A stretch of 64,000 nucleotides of DNA from Bordetella pertussis 18323 (lineage in GTDB: Bacteria; Pseudomonadota; Gammaproteobacteria; Burkholderiales; Burkholderiaceae_B): contig NC_018518.1 in the NCBI RefSeq assembly GCF_000306945.1, positions 1,240,001 to 1,304,000 on the forward strand, in the 5' to 3' direction. A program made the position numbers and the translations under genes. Under the pieces are notes generated by a model. That model was not told the DNA's origin. It saw nothing but the letters and a program-made list of their open reading frames with translations, and made no database searches. The first letter of the stretch is position 1, and every line of letters starts with the position of its first letter. This document shows, one piece after another, positions 10,436 through 31,922 of the stretch.

Positions 10436-10638
10436 GCCTGATCGCAGCTTCGCCCCGGACAGGATCTGCAACGAGGGCGCAAGATGCTGACTTCATTGCG
10501 CTCATCGTGGTGCTGACGTGGCCTGTATATCGTCGACCCGGGATTCTGGCAAGGTGGAGCTTTTTCCTGTGCTTCGTGTAATCTACACGCAGGAAATTCC
10601 TGGCTGATCATGCGTTGGCACTAAAAGCAGCGGCAGCG

Positions 10639-11589
10639 CTAGGTGTGAACTGTCAATAGGTTGTATTCGTCCAGGTTGAGTCTGGAGATGGGTACAGCGC
10701 GCCCGATGCCTTGGTGGGGTCGATGCCAGTTGTAGTGGTGTAGCCAGGATTTCATGGCATCGGCTCGGTGTTGGGAGTTCTGGTAGGTGTGAGCGTAAGC
10801 CCACTCACGCAAGGCCGACTGGATGAAGCGTTCGGCCTTGCCATTGGTCTGTGGGCGGTAAGGTCGGGTAAAGCGGTGCTTGATGCCCAGCTCATGGCAC
10901 AGCGCGGCGAAGGCGCGGCTGCGAAAGGCCGAGCCATTGTCGGTGAGCAAGCGCTGGATGGTCACGCCCAGGCGCTGGTAGTAGGCCACTGCGTCCTTGA
11001 GGAACTGGACGGCGCTGGGGAAGCGCTCGTCGGGGTGGATGTCGGTGAAGGCCACGCGGGCGTGGTCATCGATGGCCACGAAGACGAAGTCCCAGCCGGC
11101 CCCCTCAACGGTATCGCGTCGGTTGCCCGTGACCCGGTGACCAGGGCGCTGGATACGTCCCAGCTTCTTGATGTCGATGTGCAGCAGATCGCCGGGGGCC
11201 TGATGCTCGTAGCGCACCACCGGCTCGGCCGGCTCCAGGTCGGCCAGGTGCGACAGACCGGCGCGGGCCAGGACGCGGCTGACGGTGCTGGCTGACACGC
11301 CCAGCGCCTGGGCGATGCGCGCTTGGGTCAGCCGCTTGCGGCGCAGCTCCACGATAGCCAGCGCCTTGGCCGGCGCAATCGCTCGGGGCGAGACCGTCGG
11401 GCGCGAGGACGCATCGGCCAAGCCCGCCTGGCCCTGAGCCAGGAAGCGGCCCAGCCATTTGCGCACAGTCGGCGCGGTGACCCCATAGGCGCGGGCCGCT
11501 TCAGGCACACAAACTTGATGGGCGATCAATTGCTGGACCATTTCGAGTCGACGTAGGAAGGTCAATCGGGCATGCTTATGGGTGTTCAT
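10639..11589 (-). CDS. IS481 transposase (copy 1)
   Basis: The 316-residue DDE transposase has an N-terminal helix-turn-helix region (VCVPEAARAYGVTAPTVRKWLGRF) and an integrase-like core with the acidic residues in VFVAIDDHARVAF, LLTDNGSAF and NGKAERFIQSALREW. The product differs from copy 2 only in the last residue (Thr instead of Ser). That codon is split between the element end and the flanking target base. The TAG stop itself lies in the CTAG of the target site, outside the inverted repeat. Confidence 0.96.
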   Translation of the reverse strand: MNTHKHARLTFLRRLEMVQQLIAHQVCVPEAARAYGVTAPTVRKWLGRFLAQGQAGLADASSRPTVSPRAIAPAKALAIVELRRKRLTQARIAQALGVSASTVSRVLARAGLSHLADLEPAEPVVRYEHQAPGDLLHIDIKKLGRIQRPGHRVTGNRRDTVEGAGWDFVFVAIDDHARVAFTDIHPDERFPSAVQFLKDAVAYYQRLGVTIQRLLTDNGSAFRSRAFAALCHELGIKHRFTRPYRPQTNGKAERFIQSALREWAYAHTYQNSQHRADAMKSWLHHYNWHRPHQGIGRAVPISRLNLDEYNLLTVHT

Positions 11590-11686
11590 CCGGCCGGGCT
11601 CCTTGAGTGAACTGGGGGGGTGGCGATTTCCAGTTTCTCAAATCCGGTTCGGATGAACCATGCATACAACCTATTGAATCTTCACA
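10644..11686 (-). mobile_element. IS481, copy 1
   Basis: The 1043-base element has imperfect terminal inverted repeats: TGTGAACTGTCAATAGGTTG on the left and the complement of TGTGAAGATTCAATAGGTTG on the right. It matches the copy at 26103-27145 almost base for base in inverted orientation. The flanks are GCTAGG (10638-10643) and CCTAGG (11687-11692). Both contain the CTAG core of IS481 target sites but differ at the first base, so they are not a clean 6-bp duplication. The right flank falls on the stop codon of the neighbouring ABC ATPase gene. Confidence 0.95.
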
Positions 11687-11687
11687 C

Positions 11688-12458
11688 CTAGGCGGCCTCG
11701 ATCACCGATTGCAGGAACTGCTGCGTGCGCGGCTCGCGCGGCGCGGCGAACAACTGGGCCGACTCGGCGTCCTCGACGATATTGCCTTCGTCGAAGAACA
11801 GCGTGCGGTCCGAACTGCGCTCGGCGAATTTCATCTGGTGGGTGACGATGATCATCGTCATGGTGCGCCGGGCCGCCAGGTCGCGCAGAATCTGCAGGAT
11901 ACCGCCCACCAGTTCCGGATCGAGCGCCGACGTCACCTCGTCGAACAGCATGACCTCCGGGCACATGGCCAGCGCCCGCGCAATACCGACGCGCTGCTTC
12001 TGGCCGCCCGACAGTTGCGCCGGATAGGCATCCAGCTTGTCGCCCAGGCCCACCATGTCCAGGTACTCGCGGCCACGCGCCACCGCCTCGTCGCGCGACA
12101 GGCCCAGCACGTACAGCGGCGCTTCGATCACATTGCCCAGCGCCGTCTTGTGCGGAAACAGGTTGAAGTGCTGGAACACCATGCCGATCTTGCCGCGCAC
12201 CCGGCGCACATGGGCCGAGTTGGGCCCCATTTCGCGCCCTTGCGCGTCATGCCACATGGATTCGCCATCGATCTCGATCGCGCCGCTGGTCGGCCGGTCC
12301 AGGGTCATCAGCAGGCGCAGCAAGGTCGATTTGCCGGAGCCGGACGGCCCGATCACCGAGACGGTCTGGCCGGCCGGAATTTCCAGGTCTATGCCCCGCA
12401 GCACGTCCAGGTCGCCGTACCGCTTGCACAGTTTGGCCAAACGGATGCTTGCGCTCAT
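11688..12458 (-). CDS. amino-acid/compatible-solute ABC transporter ATPase (EhuA/GlnQ-like)
   Basis: The 256-residue ATPase powers the polar-amino-acid-type importer encoded upstream. Walker A GPSGSGKST is at about residues 37-45, the signature LSGGQKQRVGIARALA near 151-166 and the Walker B segment VMLFDEVTSALDP just after. The MWHDAQGREMGPNSAHVRRVRGKIGMVFQ insertion resembles ectoine transporter EhuA more than plain GlnQ. The start overlaps the permease stop by 4 bases. The TAG stop lies within the CTAG flank of IS481 copy 1, so the insertion sits exactly at the gene's end. Confidence 0.9.
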   Translation of the reverse strand: MSASIRLAKLCKRYGDLDVLRGIDLEIPAGQTVSVIGPSGSGKSTLLRLLMTLDRPTSGAIEIDGESMWHDAQGREMGPNSAHVRRVRGKIGMVFQHFNLFPHKTALGNVIEAPLYVLGLSRDEAVARGREYLDMVGLGDKLDAYPAQLSGGQKQRVGIARALAMCPEVMLFDEVTSALDPELVGGILQILRDLAARRTMTMIIVTHQMKFAERSSDRTLFFDEGNIVEDAESAQLFAAPREPRTQQFLQSVIEAA

Positions 12459-25778: not shown

Positions 25779-26102
25779 ACGATGCGCGAATAGCTTGCGG
25801 CCGGCGCGGCCTCGCGCAGGTAGCGATCGAACGTCATGGCGACCGCCCGCACGAAATACCACCCCAGTTCGGTTACCTGCATCACCTCGGCGTCCAGGGT
25901 CACCAGCCCCAGTCCGGCCAGCTCCCGCAGGCGGGCCAGCTCAGGCCCGAACGCCGCGCTGGCGGGCGCGCCGGCCGACCCACCCAGCTCGGCCAGCGCC
26001 AGCCGGCCCCGGCACATCACCGCCATGATCAGCCGGCGCCGCAGCTCGTCGTCGGCCGACAGGCGCAGGCCCCGCTCGATGGGCAGCCGCGCCTGCGCTA
26101 GC
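25775..26102 (-). pseudogene. hemN: oxygen-independent coproporphyrinogen III oxidase, C-terminal fragment
   Basis: The reading frame from the IS481 boundary gives about 108 residues (LAQARLPIERGLRLSADDELRRRLIMAVMCRGRLALAEL ... VTELGWYFVRAVAMTFDRYLREAAPAASYSRIV). These match the C-terminal helical domain of HemN radical-SAM enzymes. The catalytic N-terminal three quarters, with the CxxxCxxC cluster site, are absent. On the other side of the IS lies an unrelated autotransporter. IS481 therefore interrupted the gene and recombination or deletion removed its 5' part. It cannot make active enzyme. Confidence 0.85.
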
Positions 26103-27145
26103 TGTGAAGATTCAATAGGTTGTATGCATGGTTCATCCGAACCGGATTTGAGAAACTGGAAATCGCCGACCCCCCAGTTCACTCAAGGAGCCCGGCCGGA
26201 TGAACACCCATAAGCATGCCCGATTGACCTTCCTACGTCGACTCGAAATGGTCCAGCAATTGATCGCCCATCAAGTTTGTGTGCCTGAAGCGGCCCGCGC
26301 CTATGGGGTCACCGCGCCGACTGTGCGCAAATGGCTGGGCCGCTTCCTGGCTCAGGGCCAGGCGGGCTTGGCCGATGCGTCCTCGCGCCCGACGGTCTCG
26401 CCCCGAGCGATTGCGCCGGCCAAGGCGCTGGCTATCGTGGAGCTGCGCCGCAAGCGGCTGACCCAAGCGCGCATCGCCCAGGCGCTGGGCGTGTCAGCCA
26501 GCACCGTCAGCCGCGTCCTGGCCCGCGCCGGTCTGTCGCACCTGGCCGACCTGGAGCCGGCCGAGCCGGTGGTGCGCTACGAGCATCAGGCCCCCGGCGA
26601 TCTGCTGCACATCGACATCAAGAAGCTGGGACGTATCCAGCGCCCTGGCCACCGGGTCACGGGCAACCGACGCGATACCGTTGAGGGGGCCGGCTGGGAC
26701 TTCGTCTTCGTGGCCATCGATGACCACGCCCGCGTGGCCTTCACCGACATCCACCCCGACGAGCGCTTCCCCAGCGCCGTCCAGTTCCTCAAGGACGCAG
26801 TGGCCTACTACCAGCGCCTGGGCGTGACCATCCAGCGCTTGCTCACCGACAATGGCTCGGCCTTTCGCAGCCGCGCCTTCGCCGCGCTGTGCCATGAGCT
26901 GGGCATCAAGCACCGCTTTACCCGACCTTACCGCCCACAGACCAATGGCAAGGCCGAACGCTTCATCCAGTCGGCCTTGCGTGAGTGGGCTTACGCTCAC
27001 ACCTACCAGAACTCCCAACACCGAGCCGATGCCATGAAATCCTGGCTACACCACTACAACTGGCATCGACCCCACCAAGGCATCGGGCGCGCTGTACCCA
27101 TCTCCAGACTCAACCTGGACGAATACAACCTATTGACAGTTCACA
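26103..27145 (+). mobile_element. IS481, copy 2
   Basis: The 1043-base element has the same terminal inverted repeats as copy 1 and lies in the opposite orientation. It is flanked on both sides by GCTAGC (26097-26102 and 27146-27151), which looks like a perfect 6-bp target duplication of the NCTAGN type. However, the left flank is hemN and the right flank is an autotransporter, so the sides did not belong to one gene. The match may come from recombination between two copies that used the same target hexamer. Confidence 0.96.
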
Positions 27146-27150
27146 GCTAG
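26200..27150 (+). CDS. IS481 transposase (copy 2)
   Basis: The 316-residue DDE transposase is identical to copy 1 except for the final Ser. An N-terminal helix-turn-helix region is followed by the catalytic core with DDHARVAF, TDNGSAF and the glutamate in NGKAERFIQS. An AAGGAG site precedes the ATG. The last codon AGC uses one element base and two flanking bases. The TAG stop is entirely in the target-site CTAG, as in copy 1. Confidence 0.97.
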   Translation: MNTHKHARLTFLRRLEMVQQLIAHQVCVPEAARAYGVTAPTVRKWLGRFLAQGQAGLADASSRPTVSPRAIAPAKALAIVELRRKRLTQARIAQALGVSASTVSRVLARAGLSHLADLEPAEPVVRYEHQAPGDLLHIDIKKLGRIQRPGHRVTGNRRDTVEGAGWDFVFVAIDDHARVAFTDIHPDERFPSAVQFLKDAVAYYQRLGVTIQRLLTDNGSAFRSRAFAALCHELGIKHRFTRPYRPQTNGKAERFIQSALREWAYAHTYQNSQHRADAMKSWLHHYNWHRPHQGIGRAVPISRLNLDEYNLLTVHS

Positions 27151-28637
27151 CGGCGCCGGCGAGCGGCGCATCGCCCGGCGCGCCTGCCATGCCGTCACCC
27201 GATGCCTTGCCGCACACGCCGCCTGCTTCAGGCGGCGATCGCGTGATCAGCGGGATCCTGCAGCAGGACCTCGGCAGTTGGCTGGCGCCGGATGCCGCAA
27301 AGCGCAGCCCCTCCGAGCCTGGCAAGGCGGCCGAAAAAATCGGGGTAATGCCGAACGAGGACCTCGGCAAGTGGCTGGTTCCGGGGGCGCAAAAGAACAA
27401 TCCGCCCGAGCCTGGCAAGACGCTGGACGAAATCCGTGCGGGTCTCGAAAAATGGGTGGCGCCCGGGTCCAAGCCGCCCGTCGAACCGGATCCGGACAAG
27501 GCGACGCAGGCGTATCGCAAAGACCTCGATAAATGGCTGGCGCCTCCGGCCAAGTCCGGCCCGCCCGAAGCGCCACCCGTCGTCCAACCCGAAGCGCCGC
27601 CGCAAGCGCAACCTGAGGCGCCGCCTGTCGTGCCGCCGCCGGCCGAGCCGCCAGCAGCTCGACCGCCGGCCGTTCCGCCCGCGCGGCCGGCCGGCGACGC
27701 GGTGTACGTGCCGGGCACGCGCACGCTGACGCCGACGGCCAACGCGGCGGTGGGCACGGCCAGCGCCGCGCAAGGTCTGTGGCAGGCCGAGATGAACGCG
27801 TTGAGCAAGCGCATGGGCGAGTTGCGCCTGACGCCGGTTGCGGGCGGCGTATGGGGCCGCGCTTTTGGCCGGCGCCAGGACGTCGACAACCGCGTGTCGC
27901 GCGAGTTCCGCCAGACCATCAGCGGTTTCGAACTGGGCGCCGATACCGCCTTGCCGGTGGCCGACGGGCGCTGGCACGTGGGCGCGGTGGCTGGCTACAC
28001 CAACGGCCGCATCAAGTTCGACCGGGGCGGCACGGGCGATGACGACAGCGTGCACGTGGGCGCTTACGCTACCTACATCGAGGACGGCGGTTTCTATATG
28101 GATGGCATCGTGCGGGTCAGCCGCATTCGCCACGCGTTCAAGGTGGACGACGCCAAGGGCCGGCGCGTGCGCGGCCAGTACCGCGGCAATGGCGTGGGCG
28201 CGTCGCTGGAACTGGGCAAGCGCTTCACGTGGCCCGGCGCCTGGTACGTGGAGCCGCAGCTGGAGGTGGCCGCCTTCCATGCGCAAGGGGCCGACTACAC
28301 CGCCAGCAACGGCCTGCGCATCAAGGACGACGGCACGAACTCCATGCTGGGCCGCCTGGGCCTGCACGTGGGGCGGCAGTTCGACCTGGGCGATGGCCGC
28401 GTGGTGCAGCCCTACATGAAGCTGAGCTGGGTGCAGGAGTTCGACGGCAAGGGCACGGTGCGCACCAACGACATCCGGCACAAGGTGCGGCTCGATGGCG
28501 GCCGCACCGAACTGGCCGTAGGGGTGGCTTCGCAACTGGGCAAGCACGGCAGCCTGTTCGGCTCGTACGAGTACGCCAAGGGCAGCCGCCAGACCATGCC
28601 GTGGACCTTCCACGTCGGCTATCGCTACGCCTGGTAG
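27146..28637 (+). pseudogene. autotransporter lacking its N-terminus (cut by IS481)
   Basis: From the IS boundary an open frame of about 496 codons encodes a proline-rich passenger, then a pertactin-type autotransporter beta-barrel (from about 27790) ending in the outer-membrane signature YRYAW. The passenger contains four tandem motifs of the form DLGKWLAPG (27266-27550). No signal peptide remains. The first internal Met (27189) would give a cytosolic product, so export is impossible unless the missing 5' part is restored. From memory it may be the gene called bapB beside tcfA in other strains, but I cannot confirm that. The barrel is identical to that of tcfA downstream. Confidence 0.82.
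27266..27550 (+). repeat. four degenerate D-L-x-K-W-L-A-P passenger repeats
   Basis: DLGSWLAP, DLGKWLVP, GLEKWVAP and DLDKWLAP recur at roughly 25-33-codon spacing, separated by charged Pro/Glu-rich linkers such as PSEPGKAAEKI and PPEPGKTLDEI. This is a diverged tandem repeat within the truncated autotransporter's passenger. Confidence 0.7.
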
Positions 28638-28680
28638 CGCATCGTATGGCGGGGTGCCTGTCCCCGCTGGGACAGGCACA
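27780..28680 (+). repeat. 901-bp direct repeat, copy A (barrel module and terminator hairpin)
   Basis: The sequence from TGGCAGGCCGAG through the barrel, stop codon and following hairpin is repeated at 30183-31083 with no difference that I can see. It ends sharply: 28681 onward and 31084 onward diverge at once. All reading frames of the two copies translate identically. Confidence 0.93.
28656..28677 (+). terminator. hairpin after the truncated autotransporter
   Basis: A 9-bp perfect stem GCCTGTCCC/GGGACAGGC with a 4-base loop lies 18 bases after the stop codon. It has no T run. The same hairpin follows tcfA because it is inside the duplicated module. Confidence 0.55.
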
Positions 28681-29020
28681 TCGCCGTACGCCGTCGACGC
28701 CAGCCTGCCAAGACGGTCTCTGTCCCGGGGCGGGAGGCTCACTGAGCCTCTCGCGCAGGTGCGTGTGTTTCGTGCGTGGATGGCGCTTATTTCCTTTGTA
28801 TTGGTTCGCAGCTTCGTTTTGCAGGCATGGCGAGTGCAACGGGAAATAAAGGGTGCGTCTGATAGTTGGGCAGTGGTGGTGTGTAGACACTCACCGACAG
28901 CAATGGGAGGACGGGTGCGTCATCCGCGACGTGCGGCGGTTCTCCACATTGATTCAGGCCGCTTCTTGCGCGTCGTGTCTTCCGGCAGCGGGAGCGTCAA
29001 TCCCCTTGAGACCAGAACCT
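28681..29020 (+). promoter_or_regulatory. tcfA upstream region
   Basis: This 340-base non-coding stretch precedes tcfA. It is less GC-rich than its surroundings and contains a TTTCCTT element at 28790-28796, similar to the TTTC-type half-sites bound by BvgA. TcfA is known to be Bvg-activated in B. pertussis, so a promoter is expected here, but I cannot place -10/-35 boxes with confidence. Confidence 0.4.
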
Positions 29021-31040
29021 ATGCACATTTACGGAAATATGAATCGAGCAACACCTTGCCGCGGTGCGGTGCGTGCCCTTGCGCTTGCCCTGCTGGGAGC
29101 GGGTATGTGGACACTTTCTCCTCCCTCGGCATGGGCGCTTAAGCTCCCGTCGCTGCTGACGGACGACGAGCTGGAGCTGGTTCTGCCGACTGGCATGTCT
29201 CTGGAGGATTTCAAGCGCAGCCTTCAGGAGTCCGCGCCGAGCGCGCTGGCAACGCCGCCGTCGTCTTCGCCTCCGGTTGCGAAGCCAGGTCCGGGCTCCG
29301 TTGCCGAGGCTCCGTCGGGGTCGGGCCACAAGGACAACCCATCCCCTCCCGTCGTCGGCGTCGGTCCAGGTATGGCGGAGTCGTCTGGCGGACATAACCC
29401 CGGCGTGGGGGGGGGGCACGCATGAAAATGGGTTGCCCGGTATAGGAAAGGTCGGCGGGTCTGCGCCCGGACCGGGTGGTCTGGGCCGCAATGACGAAAA
29501 CTCCGAAAGTTCGCTGAATCCGGGAACTCTCGGACCTTCGCCCGGCCCGGATACCAGTACGGGCTCGGGTCCCGACGCCGGCATGGCGTCCGGAGCGGGT
29601 TCGACGTCGCCCGGCGCATCGGGTGGGGCGGGCAAGGATGCGATGCCGCCCTCGGAAGGCGAGAGGCCGGACTCCGGTATGTCCGATTCGGGGCGGGGTG
29701 GCGAATCGTCGGCTGGAGGCTTGAATCCGGACGGCGCTGGCAAGCCACCGCGGGAGGAAGGCGAGCCGGGTTCCAAGTCTCCTGCGGACGGTGGCCAGGA
29801 CGGGCCGCCGCCGCCCCGGGACGGCGGCGATGCGGATCCGCAACCTCCGCGGGACGATGGCAATGGGGAACAGCAGCCGCCCAAGGGCGGCGGGGATGAG
29901 GGGCAGCGCCCGCCGCCTGCCGCCGGAAACGGTGGCAACGGTGGCAACGGGAACGCGCAGCTTCCCGAGCGCGGCGACGACGCGGGTCCGAAGCCTCCCG
30001 AGGGAGAGGGCGGCGATGAAGGTCCGCAACCGCCGCAGGGCGGCGGCGAGCAGGACGCGCCGGAGGTTCCTCCCGTCGCGCCGGCGCCGCCCGCGGGCAA
30101 CGGTGTCTATGACCCGGGCACGCATACCTTGACCACGCCGGCCTCTGCGGCGGTGAGCCTGGCCAGCAGTTCGCATGGCGTATGGCAGGCCGAGATGAAC
30201 GCGTTGAGCAAGCGCATGGGCGAGTTGCGCCTGACGCCGGTTGCGGGCGGCGTATGGGGCCGCGCTTTTGGCCGGCGCCAGGACGTCGACAACCGCGTGT
30301 CGCGCGAGTTCCGCCAGACCATCAGCGGTTTCGAACTGGGCGCCGATACCGCCTTGCCGGTGGCCGACGGGCGCTGGCACGTGGGCGCGGTGGCTGGCTA
30401 CACCAACGGCCGCATCAAGTTCGACCGGGGCGGCACGGGCGATGACGACAGCGTGCACGTGGGCGCTTACGCTACCTACATCGAGGACGGCGGTTTCTAT
30501 ATGGATGGCATCGTGCGGGTCAGCCGCATTCGCCACGCGTTCAAGGTGGACGACGCCAAGGGCCGGCGCGTGCGCGGCCAGTACCGCGGCAATGGCGTGG
30601 GCGCGTCGCTGGAACTGGGCAAGCGCTTCACGTGGCCCGGCGCCTGGTACGTGGAGCCGCAGCTGGAGGTGGCCGCCTTCCATGCGCAAGGGGCCGACTA
30701 CACCGCCAGCAACGGCCTGCGCATCAAGGACGACGGCACGAACTCCATGCTGGGCCGCCTGGGCCTGCACGTGGGGCGGCAGTTCGACCTGGGCGATGGC
30801 CGCGTGGTGCAGCCCTACATGAAGCTGAGCTGGGTGCAGGAGTTCGACGGCAAGGGCACGGTGCGCACCAACGACATCCGGCACAAGGTGCGGCTCGATG
30901 GCGGCCGCACCGAACTGGCCGTAGGGGTGGCTTCGCAACTGGGCAAGCACGGCAGCCTGTTCGGCTCGTACGAGTACGCCAAGGGCAGCCGCCAGACCAT
31001 GCCGTGGACCTTCCACGTCGGCTATCGCTACGCCTGGTAG
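29021..31040 (+). pseudogene. tcfA: tracheal colonization factor autotransporter, frame OFF at a G10 tract
   Basis: Translation from ATG 29021 gives a signal peptide (to about PSAWA), then KLPSLLTDDELELVLPTGMSLEDF, recognised as TcfA, and stops at 29425. The frame breaks at ten G residues (29407-29416). With nine it reads NPGVGGGTHENGLPG and continues about 672 codons to YRYAW. The passenger is Pro/Gly-rich and has an RGD motif (LPERGDDAG). The pertactin-type barrel starts near 30190. The protein is a Bvg-regulated surface adhesin that helps tracheal colonisation. As read, only about 134 residues would be made. The tract probably allows reversible slippage. ATG 29039 is an alternative start. 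Confidence 0.93.
29407..29416 (+). repeat. G10 homopolymer in tcfA
   Basis: Ten consecutive G residues sit in the passenger region. Nine (or twelve) would keep the upstream and downstream frames of tcfA joined, so ten puts the gene out of frame. Confidence 0.95.
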
Positions 31041-31083
31041 CGCATCGTATGGCGGGGTGCCTGTCCCCGCTGGGACAGGCACA
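30183..31083 (+). repeat. 901-bp direct repeat, copy B (tcfA barrel and terminator hairpin)
   Basis: This is the second copy of the module at 27780-28680, offset by 2403 bases. It carries the tcfA beta-barrel, its stop and the GCCTGTCCC hairpin (31059-31080). Upstream of 30183 the two autotransporters share no obvious nucleotide identity. Confidence 0.93.
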
Positions 31084-31136
31084 CCGTGCCGCAGATGTCA
31101 GTCCTCATGCGGGACAGGCGCCACAGGGCCTGACGC

Positions 31137-31922
31137 TCATCCAGGCGCGTTGCGCTTGCGCTTGGCAGGCGTCTTGCCGGAGGTCGGCGCAATCCCCGCT
31201 TCCTGCTGCGCCTGGCGGACGATGGCCTGTGCGGCCCATGTCACGACGTCCACGATGTCGTCCAGCTCCAGGTGCCAGATATCCTTGAGGATCAGGAAGA
31301 CTTCCGTGCCATACAGCAAGGACAAGGCGCGTATGACGCGCTGATGCGCGGCGGGCTCGAGCTGGCTGGCCAGCGGGGCCGTGACGTGCTTGAGGGTGTC
31401 GACGCGATGCCCGCGCACCAGGCGCGGCGTATCGGGGTTCTGTCCGGCGCTGGCTTCGGCGTACTGCTGCAAGGACACCATGATGGCCGCGCGCAGCGAG
31501 GCCTCGTGCTGCTGCAGGCGCGGGTAGGCAAAGCGCAGCAGCTCGTCGATGCGTTCGGCCGCGTCGTCGGATTGCGGCTGCCATTGCAGAATGGGCCCCA
31601 GGCTCTGGTCCACCACCGCGGCGATCAGCGCGCTCTGGCTGGGAAAGTAGCGGTAGGCGGTAGCGCGCGAGACCGCCGCGGCTTCCGCCAGTTCGGCCAC
31701 CGAAGGGGTGATGCCCTGGACCATCAGGCGCTGGGCGGTATCGAGCAAGGTCCTGCGCATGCGGGCCCGCGGACCGTGCGGCGGTTCGCCGCTGAGCGCG
31801 GCCTGCGGACTGGCCGGCGCGATCAACGGCACTGATTCGGGTAACGTCTGCGTTGCGGCCGTGTCGGCCGCCCCAGCGGATTGACGTGAGACACTAGTCT
31901 CAATATGATTCTTTCGTCTCAT
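31137..31922 (-). CDS. TetR-family transcriptional regulator
   Basis: A 261-residue protein starts at an ATG with AGGAAAA just upstream. A GTG at 31952 would add ten residues. After a long Ala/Pro-rich N-terminal extension (about 50 residues) comes the TetR helix-turn-helix ([47 protein letters not shown]). A ligand-binding helical domain and a basic tail ([12 protein letters not shown]) follow. It is divergent from the Tm-1-like gene, with about 67 bases between starts, and probably represses that operon. The inducer is unknown. Confidence 0.85.

What the first reader, a model, noticed from the sequence alone, without database searches (positions are those of the whole stretch)
27780..31083. 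Two neighbouring autotransporters share an identical 901-bp barrel plus terminator module
27780-28680 and 30183-31083 appear identical through the translocator, stop codon and following hairpin. The passengers on either side are unrelated, and the boundaries are sharp. This is the pattern of recent gene conversion or of a cassette in which one export barrel is shared by different passengers. Recombination between the repeats would delete 2.4 kb and fuse the upstream passenger to the tcfA end, or spread barrel changes between genes.
Basis: seen in the sequence. Interest (0 to 1): 0.75.

Follow-up and report, generated by a model that had tools for sequence, protein, structure and literature searches.

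The report
Shared export barrel, neighbouring Bordetella genes
Two neighbouring surface-protein genes of a whooping-cough bacterium carry letter-for-letter the same export-barrel end, most likely because recombination copies barrels between related genes; one of the two genes is a broken remnant, and loss of the other gene in patient isolates is already on record.

Summary
The module is the type Va translocator, stop codon and a terminator-like palindrome. These are not two intact autotransporters: the upstream gene is a bapB remnant cut by IS481, its 5' part 0.8 Mb away, and tcfA lies in two frames in this assembly.

The left edge lies inside homologous linker (61/90 nt identical), which suits gene conversion between old paralogues. 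In Bordetella homologues passengers follow the locus (bapB, tcfA, BB3111), barrels do not: the nearest barrel is at another locus in 10 of 10 compared. The window's bapB and tcfA share nine residues against a B. bronchiseptica bapB/tcfA pair sharing the alternatives; no residue separates the loci in both. That is the mark of concerted evolution, though that second pair is not proven to be one genome.

Crossing-over would delete tcfA (2,403 bp). tcfA deletions are reported in clinical isolates; one paper blames flanking repeats. So: real, largely explained, a known kind; barrel exchange among several loci is the part I found in no paper searched.

The parts
26103..27145 (+). IS481 copy, flanked by GCTAGC on both sides; it cuts off the 5' part of bapB
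   Evidence: End sequences and outer flanks; transposase ORF 26200-27150; inverted second copy in the window at 10631-11691. The name IS481 is recalled, not from a call
27146..28637 (+). bapB remnant: 3' part of the passenger, linker and barrel, without start region or signal sequence
   Evidence: 93-94% identical to B. bronchiseptica P0002 from residue 111 or 103 to 617; residues 1-116 match at G000:C1:2063125-2063472(-), next to another IS481
27690..27779 (+). bapB linker, homologous to but diverged from the tcfA linker at 30093-30182; the conversion edge lies at its end
   Evidence: 61 of 90 nt identical in register
27780..28680 (+). Identical module, copy 1: translocator (285 codons), stop, 43-nt 3' stretch with palindrome
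   Evidence: Exact-match extension; PF03797 and TIGR01414; residues 3-284 align with the BrkA beta-domain structure 3qq2
28654..28679 (.). 26-bp palindrome, terminator-like hairpin; 97 such sites in the genome
   Evidence: the stretch 28638-28690 folds at -39.8 kcal/mol, z -6.75
28681..29020 (+). Intergenic stretch before tcfA, not shared with the other copy
   Evidence: Mismatch profile; sequence
29021..29425 (+). tcfA first piece: start, signal sequence and first part of the passenger; frame ends at 29425
   Evidence: ORF 28853-29425; residues 1-133 of B. bronchiseptica TcfA P0044 match at 83%
29424..31040 (+). tcfA second piece in another frame: rest of the passenger, linker and barrel (upstream limit approximate)
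   Evidence: Open frame 29277-31040; translated from 29424 on without a stop; published phase-variable tract (PMC1891110, passages)
30183..31083 (+). Identical module, copy 2
31057..31082 (.). Palindrome at the end of copy 2

Best explanation
bapB and tcfA are old tandem paralogues with different passengers and a common translocator. Homologous (RecA-type) recombination between their barrel ends repeatedly copies one barrel over the other (gene conversion), so that barrels evolve together within a lineage while passengers stay locus-specific. The tract ends on the left where linker homology becomes too weak and on the right where homology ends after the terminator palindrome. In B. pertussis bapB was cut by IS481 and one part moved 0.8 Mb away, so its barrel is now a silent second copy. 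Its one likely present effect is as a recombination partner: crossing-over between the direct repeats would remove 2,403 bp, that is all of tcfA's own sequence. Shown: the identity, its edges, the broken genes, and the clash between barrel and locus in homologous proteins. Inferred: RecA, the direction of copying, the number and order of events, and that deletions in isolates use this repeat.
For: 901/901 identity in coding and 3' non-coding DNA, against at most 22-nt exact runs with six other own-genome loci. The left edge lies inside a 68% identical linker. Barrel pairs behind different passengers: window bapB/tcfA 285/285; P0002 bapB/P0041 tcfA 284/285; P0007 BB3111/P0044 tcfA 285/285; P0004 bapB/P0043 BB3111 283/285; P0003 bapB/P0005 BB3111 278/285. 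The nearest barrel of the same locus is 10-53 residues away; the nearest of all is at another locus in 10 of 10; mean differences within loci 42.5, between 38.8. Nine lineage-specific residues are shared by both loci, none is locus-specific. AU test rejects one clade for bapB (p 1.45e-6) and BB3111 (p 5e-60). In P0044 the likeness to BB3111 runs 14 residues further upstream into the linker, where the other tcfA linker compared (P0041) differs from P0044 at once.
Against: The AU test does not reject one tcfA clade (p 0.066), and sets of identical rows were left free in these tests. No B. bronchiseptica DNA could be fetched, so synonymous sites were compared in the window alone. 'Another locus in 10 of 10' is also reached by 1154 of 5000 label shuffles: it shows absence of locus signal, not attraction. 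The long shared linkers of bapB and BB3111 (64 residues in P0003/P0005) are no clean conversion edge, since P0003/P0007 share the same 64 residues with 40 barrel differences. P0001, a bapB-type protein like the window's, differs from the window barrel at 3 residues: noise or a real difference.
Confidence: 0.8

Rival explanations
1. One recent duplication or cassette insertion placed the same barrel-plus-terminator behind a second passenger, with no repeated conversion.
For: The tract ends one base past the palindrome, and the 3' end is shared as well; a shared module behind different passengers looks like a cassette.
Against: The linker upstream of both copies is homologous but diverged, so both genes already had this kind of end. 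B. bronchiseptica bapB and tcfA with the same passengers carry other barrels, 76-99% identical to the window's. Nine lineage-specific and no locus-specific residues.
Confidence: 0.08
2. The barrels were homogenised not inside one genome but by import of homologous DNA from other Bordetella strains.
For: The same barrel types turn up at different loci in proteins from different B. bronchiseptica assemblies.
Against: Import alone would replace like with like at a locus; a jump to another locus still needs exchange between paralogues (inference). PMC3994516 (passage) reports no gene gain in B. pertussis.
Confidence: 0.09
3. The second copy is an assembly duplication, or a consensus error that made two diverged copies look identical.
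For: 18323 was sequenced at about 6-fold Sanger coverage (PMC3533505, passage), and repeats can be blended. P0001 differs from the window barrel at 3 residues.
Against: Both copies have unique flanks on both sides; inserts of 4-9 kb (same passage) span a 901-bp repeat; P0006, on a 5,818-base contig of unnamed strain, joins the bapB linker to a barrel identical at 285/285, and TcfA on contigs of 4.10, 4.13 and 4.13 Mb (P0010, P0014, P0008) has the same barrel.
Confidence: 0.02
4. Selection for one best barrel keeps the two identical without recombination.
For: Barrels must insert through the same Bam machinery (general knowledge).
Against: Identity includes synonymous sites and 43 nt after the stop codon; one copy sits in a gene without start and signal sequence; barrels of the same loci elsewhere differ by up to 24%.
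Confidence: 0.01

Closest known systems
tcfA deletion in B. pertussis clinical isolates (van Gent et al. 2007, not held; cited in PMC7481377 and PMC7490692, passages)
   Same: [quoted passage not shown] PMC7490692 (passage) lists 6 deletions among 784 isolates, a set that seems to include isolates chosen for lack of TcfA.
   Different: I could not read the original, so I cannot say that its repeats are these 901-bp barrels; conversion between barrels is not mentioned in the passages that I saw.
Classical type Va autotransporters with a BrkA-like translocator (PF03797; BrkA 3qq2, Vag8 7akv)
   Same: The module aligns over nearly its whole length with the BrkA beta-domain structure (E 1.8e-77) and over its whole length with Vag8 (E 2.5e-68).
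   Different: Other own-genome barrels of this kind are 68-76% identical in DNA and show no long exact run with this one.
SPATE autotransporters and other families with one translocator type behind many passengers (recalled; EspP appears)
   Same: Passenger varies, translocator is shared.
   Different: Here the sharing is exact between two neighbours and changes partner between lineages.
Gene conversion between paralogous outer-membrane protein genes, e.g. H. pylori babA/babB (recalled, no call)
   Same: Conserved ends of paralogous surface-protein genes serve as the recombining parts.
   Different: There the variable part is exchanged; here the barrel is exchanged and the passenger stays.

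Membership tests
Type Va autotransporter translocator | C-terminal beta-barrel domain PF03797 / TIGR01414 above the curated cut-off | tested here: met
   Window remnant: 197.9 bits against 26; 302.1 bits against 16
Complete autotransporter gene (upstream copy, bapB) | Start, signal sequence, passenger and barrel in one frame | tested here: not met
   Residues 1-116 are missing here and match 0.8 Mb away beside another IS481
Complete autotransporter gene (downstream copy, tcfA) | Start, signal sequence, passenger and barrel in one frame | tested here: not met
   Two frames in this assembly at a published phase-variable tract (PMC1891110); intact copies exist in other assemblies (P0010, P0014)
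Gene conversion / concerted evolution of paralogues | Abrupt switch from diverged to identical inside homologous sequence | tested here: met
   68% in the 90 nt before, then 901/901
Gene conversion / concerted evolution of paralogues | Copies within a lineage more alike than orthologues between lineages | tested here: met
   9 lineage-specific residues against 0 locus-specific; the second lineage's pair is not proven to be one genome
Gene conversion / concerted evolution of paralogues | Barrel tree in conflict with the locus | tested here: met
   AU p 1.45e-6 (bapB), 5e-60 (BB3111), but 0.066 for tcfA, not rejected
Gene conversion / concerted evolution of paralogues | Homogenisation inside single genomes other than the window's | tested here: inconclusive
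Repeat-mediated deletion of tcfA | Direct repeats flank the gene | tested here: met
   Same strand, offset 2403; the only direct-repeat family of 60 nt or more listed in 64 kb
Repeat-mediated deletion of tcfA | Deletion junction inside the repeat in real isolates | not testable with these tools
   No reads of isolates at hand; van Gent 2007 not held

The most novel reading that the evidence does not exclude
In classical Bordetella the barrels of at least four autotransporter loci (bapB, tcfA, BB3111 and a BB3110-like gene) form one gene pool: the passenger is fixed by the locus, the barrel with its surface loops is dealt out among loci by conversion, and in B. pertussis a dead gene still serves as barrel donor and as a built-in excision partner that removes tcfA at a low steady rate.
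Probability: 0.35. Interest if true: 0.5.

Novelty: new member of a known kind. Interest (0 to 1): 0.36.

Why it matters
It offers a simple, recurrent route by which a human pathogen can lose a colonisation factor, and it warns that identical barrels can confuse assembly and allele typing at this locus. If the exchange among several loci holds at DNA level, it is a natural test that autotransporter barrels are interchangeable between passengers, a long-standing question in type V secretion.

Tried and rejected
Chance or plain conservation: rejected. Single cassette event and assembly duplication: see rivals. Rfam: no family at the gathering score in 26000-31500. Two contig collections scanned for orthologous DNA gave nothing useful: genome contigs one Achromobacter barrel at 45% (records near the window's genome may be left out there), viral contigs no relative. 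In the genus search (15 genomes, the window's own among them) one other genome, G006, has a full-length barrel relative at 69% in DNA; five more have only short weak hits near E 1e-3. With TcfA P0044 at E 1e-60 again only the own genome and G006 match, G006 at one place, so no second bapB/tcfA pair. P0058, a protein in which the tcfA passenger is followed by a reverse reading of the bapB region, was set aside as a likely scaffolding error at the repeat.

Rows dropped: of the 57 proteins, one search used 14 (plus two from the window) and one search used 8 (plus two). Left out: P0001 and P0006 (bapB type, 3 and 0 differences from the window barrel), P0014 and the other near-identical B. pertussis TcfA entries, P0030 (280 residues, tcfA, 3 differences from the window barrel), P0042, P0048 and P0051 (incomplete barrels), short fragments and distant barrels. 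Which locus a protein belongs to was taken from its passenger; only P0003 (BapB), P0007 (BB3111 family), P0030 and P0044 (TcfA) and P0048 (tracheal colonization factor) carry such a name from a source. Structure prediction was not run.
Full report
WHAT IS THERE. The window is part of a 4,043,846-base single-contig genome; that length is the one given for B. pertussis 18323 in PMC3533505 (table passage), and the gene downstream is tcfA. The 901-bp identity is exact at the stated coordinates and is the only direct-repeat family of 60 nt or more that the repeat finder lists in the window. It holds the 285-codon translocator, the stop codon and 43 further bases, and ends one base past a 26-bp palindrome. 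The module starts about where the solved BrkA beta-domain chain starts (residue 3 of the module aligns with residue 2 of chain 3qq2).

EDGES. Upstream of the tract the two genes stay alignable: 61 of 90 nt identical in register over 27690-27779, then fading. Downstream of 28680 they do not match in register. So the right edge is the end of homology, while the left edge is a switch inside homologous DNA. That is what a conversion tract between old paralogues looks like; it is less expected of an inserted cassette.

STATE OF THE GENES. The upstream gene is the 3' part of bapB (93-94% to the B. bronchiseptica protein P0002 from residue 103-111 on). Residues 1-116 match at 88% at G000:C1:2063125-2063472 on the other strand, 0.8 Mb away. 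Both parts abut an IS481 at a GCTAGC; the IS481 beside the 5' part has a different hexamer on its far side. The simple reading is an IS481 insertion into bapB followed by exchange with another IS481 copy (inference). P0001, which stands for 78 sequences and lies on a 24,224-base contig of unnamed strain, begins inside the same IS481 end, so the junction is probably not limited to 18323. tcfA is in two frames here, at a homopolymeric tract reported as phase-variable (PMC1891110, passages); intact TcfA proteins of 647 residues exist in other assemblies (P0010, P0014). PMC3294513 (passages) gives 18323 the allele tcfA1.

RELATIVES. Protein searches gave three B. bronchiseptica bapB alleles, several tcfA alleles, a third locus (BB3111 family by the source of P0007; P0005 of B. 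parapertussis and P0043 assigned by passenger) and a BB3110-like gene (P0042, P0051; this label is mine). Passengers group by locus: local scores 548-1495 within bapB, tcfA and BB3111, at most 111 between these three; the BB3110-like P0042 scores 209-244 with tcfA passengers. Barrels do not. Window bapB and tcfA: 0 differences; P0002 bapB and P0041 tcfA: 1; P0007 BB3111 and P0044 tcfA: 0; P0004 bapB and P0043 BB3111: 2; P0003 bapB and P0005 BB3111: 7. The nearest barrel of the same locus is 10 to 53 residues away. The stretch shared upstream of the barrel is 0, 0, 14, 46 and 64 residues in the order window pair, P0002/P0041, P0007/P0044, P0004/P0043, P0003/P0005. The 14 residues in P0044 look like conversion reaching into the tcfA linker. 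The longer stretches say little, since bapB and BB3111 linkers are alike even where barrels differ (P0003/P0007: 64 residues shared, 40 barrel differences).

TESTS. In a tree of 16 barrels the labels are scattered: tcfA needs 4 changes (shuffled mean 4.3), bapB 4 (3.6), BB3111 3 (2.7). One-clade trees are rejected for bapB (p 1.45e-6) and BB3111 (p 5e-60), not for tcfA (p 0.066), with identical rows left free. In 10 full-length barrels the mean difference within a locus is 42.5 and between loci 38.8; the nearest barrel is at another locus in 10 of 10, which shuffled labels also reach in 1154 of 5000, so the result is absence of locus signal, not attraction. Comparing the window pair with the P0002/P0041 pair, nine residues are lineage-specific and shared by both loci, none is locus-specific and shared by both lineages. 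This is the pattern of concerted evolution, with the caution that P0002 and P0041 are not known to be from one strain.

AGE. With 2.24e-7 changes per site per year and a split of the 18323 branch 2,296 years ago (PMC3994516, passages), zero differences in 901 bp bound the last homogenisation at about 7,400 years (95%); the chance of no difference after 2,296 years of independent drift is 0.40. Ongoing conversion in B. pertussis is thus not needed to explain the identity.

CONSEQUENCE. The repeats are direct and flank all of tcfA's own sequence, so crossing-over would remove 2,403 bp and leave the bapB remnant with one barrel. [quoted passage not shown] It cites as [27] a 2012 paper in whose text a search finds no tcfA; the fitting source is van Gent et al. 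2007 (title from the reference list), which is not held. PMC7490692 (passages) lists 6 tcfA deletions among 784 isolates; the same text speaks of 10 deletion and frameshift mutants from a dedicated search, so this is no prevalence. That these deletions used the barrel repeat is my inference.

NOVELTY. Ten paper searches were answered; one search failed. Of these, some bear on barrel sharing or conversion at these loci; their listings show no paper on it, and in the papers opened I saw passages only. They cover open-licence papers, so absence from print is not shown. Gene conversion between paralogues and repeat-mediated deletion are known kinds; the set of Bordetella loci that trade barrels would be a new member, and of more interest if confirmed in DNA of complete genomes.

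Noticed in passing
28654-28679, 31057-31082; 97 sites in G000: A 26-bp palindrome GTGCCTGTCCCNGCNGGGACAGGCAC occurs at 97 sites in the 4.04-Mb genome with at most 2 mismatches, while the reversed control gives 0. It ends both copies of the module; no Rfam family matches at the gathering score.
   Followed up: partly
26103-27145 and L032 (G000:C1:2061500-2066500): bapB is split by IS481 and its two parts lie 0.8 Mb apart on opposite strands, each beside an IS481. Near the 5' part lies an open frame whose protein looks like ClpB (name recalled, no call).
   Followed up: partly
protein P0058 (one contig of 156,125 bases): A predicted protein has the tcfA passenger followed by what looks like a reverse reading of the bapB linker, joined at the start of the repeat; probably a scaffolding error at the repeat, though a real inversion is not excluded.
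   Followed up: partly
protein P0001 (24,224-base contig): A bapB-type protein differs from the window barrel at three residues. Many TcfA entries on contigs of about 24,168 bases carry one to a few changes, which looks like sequencing noise.
   Followed up: no
PMC4504479 reference 27: The paper's statement on tcfA deletion cites a 2012 article in which a text search finds no mention of tcfA; the citation seems misplaced.
   Followed up: yes
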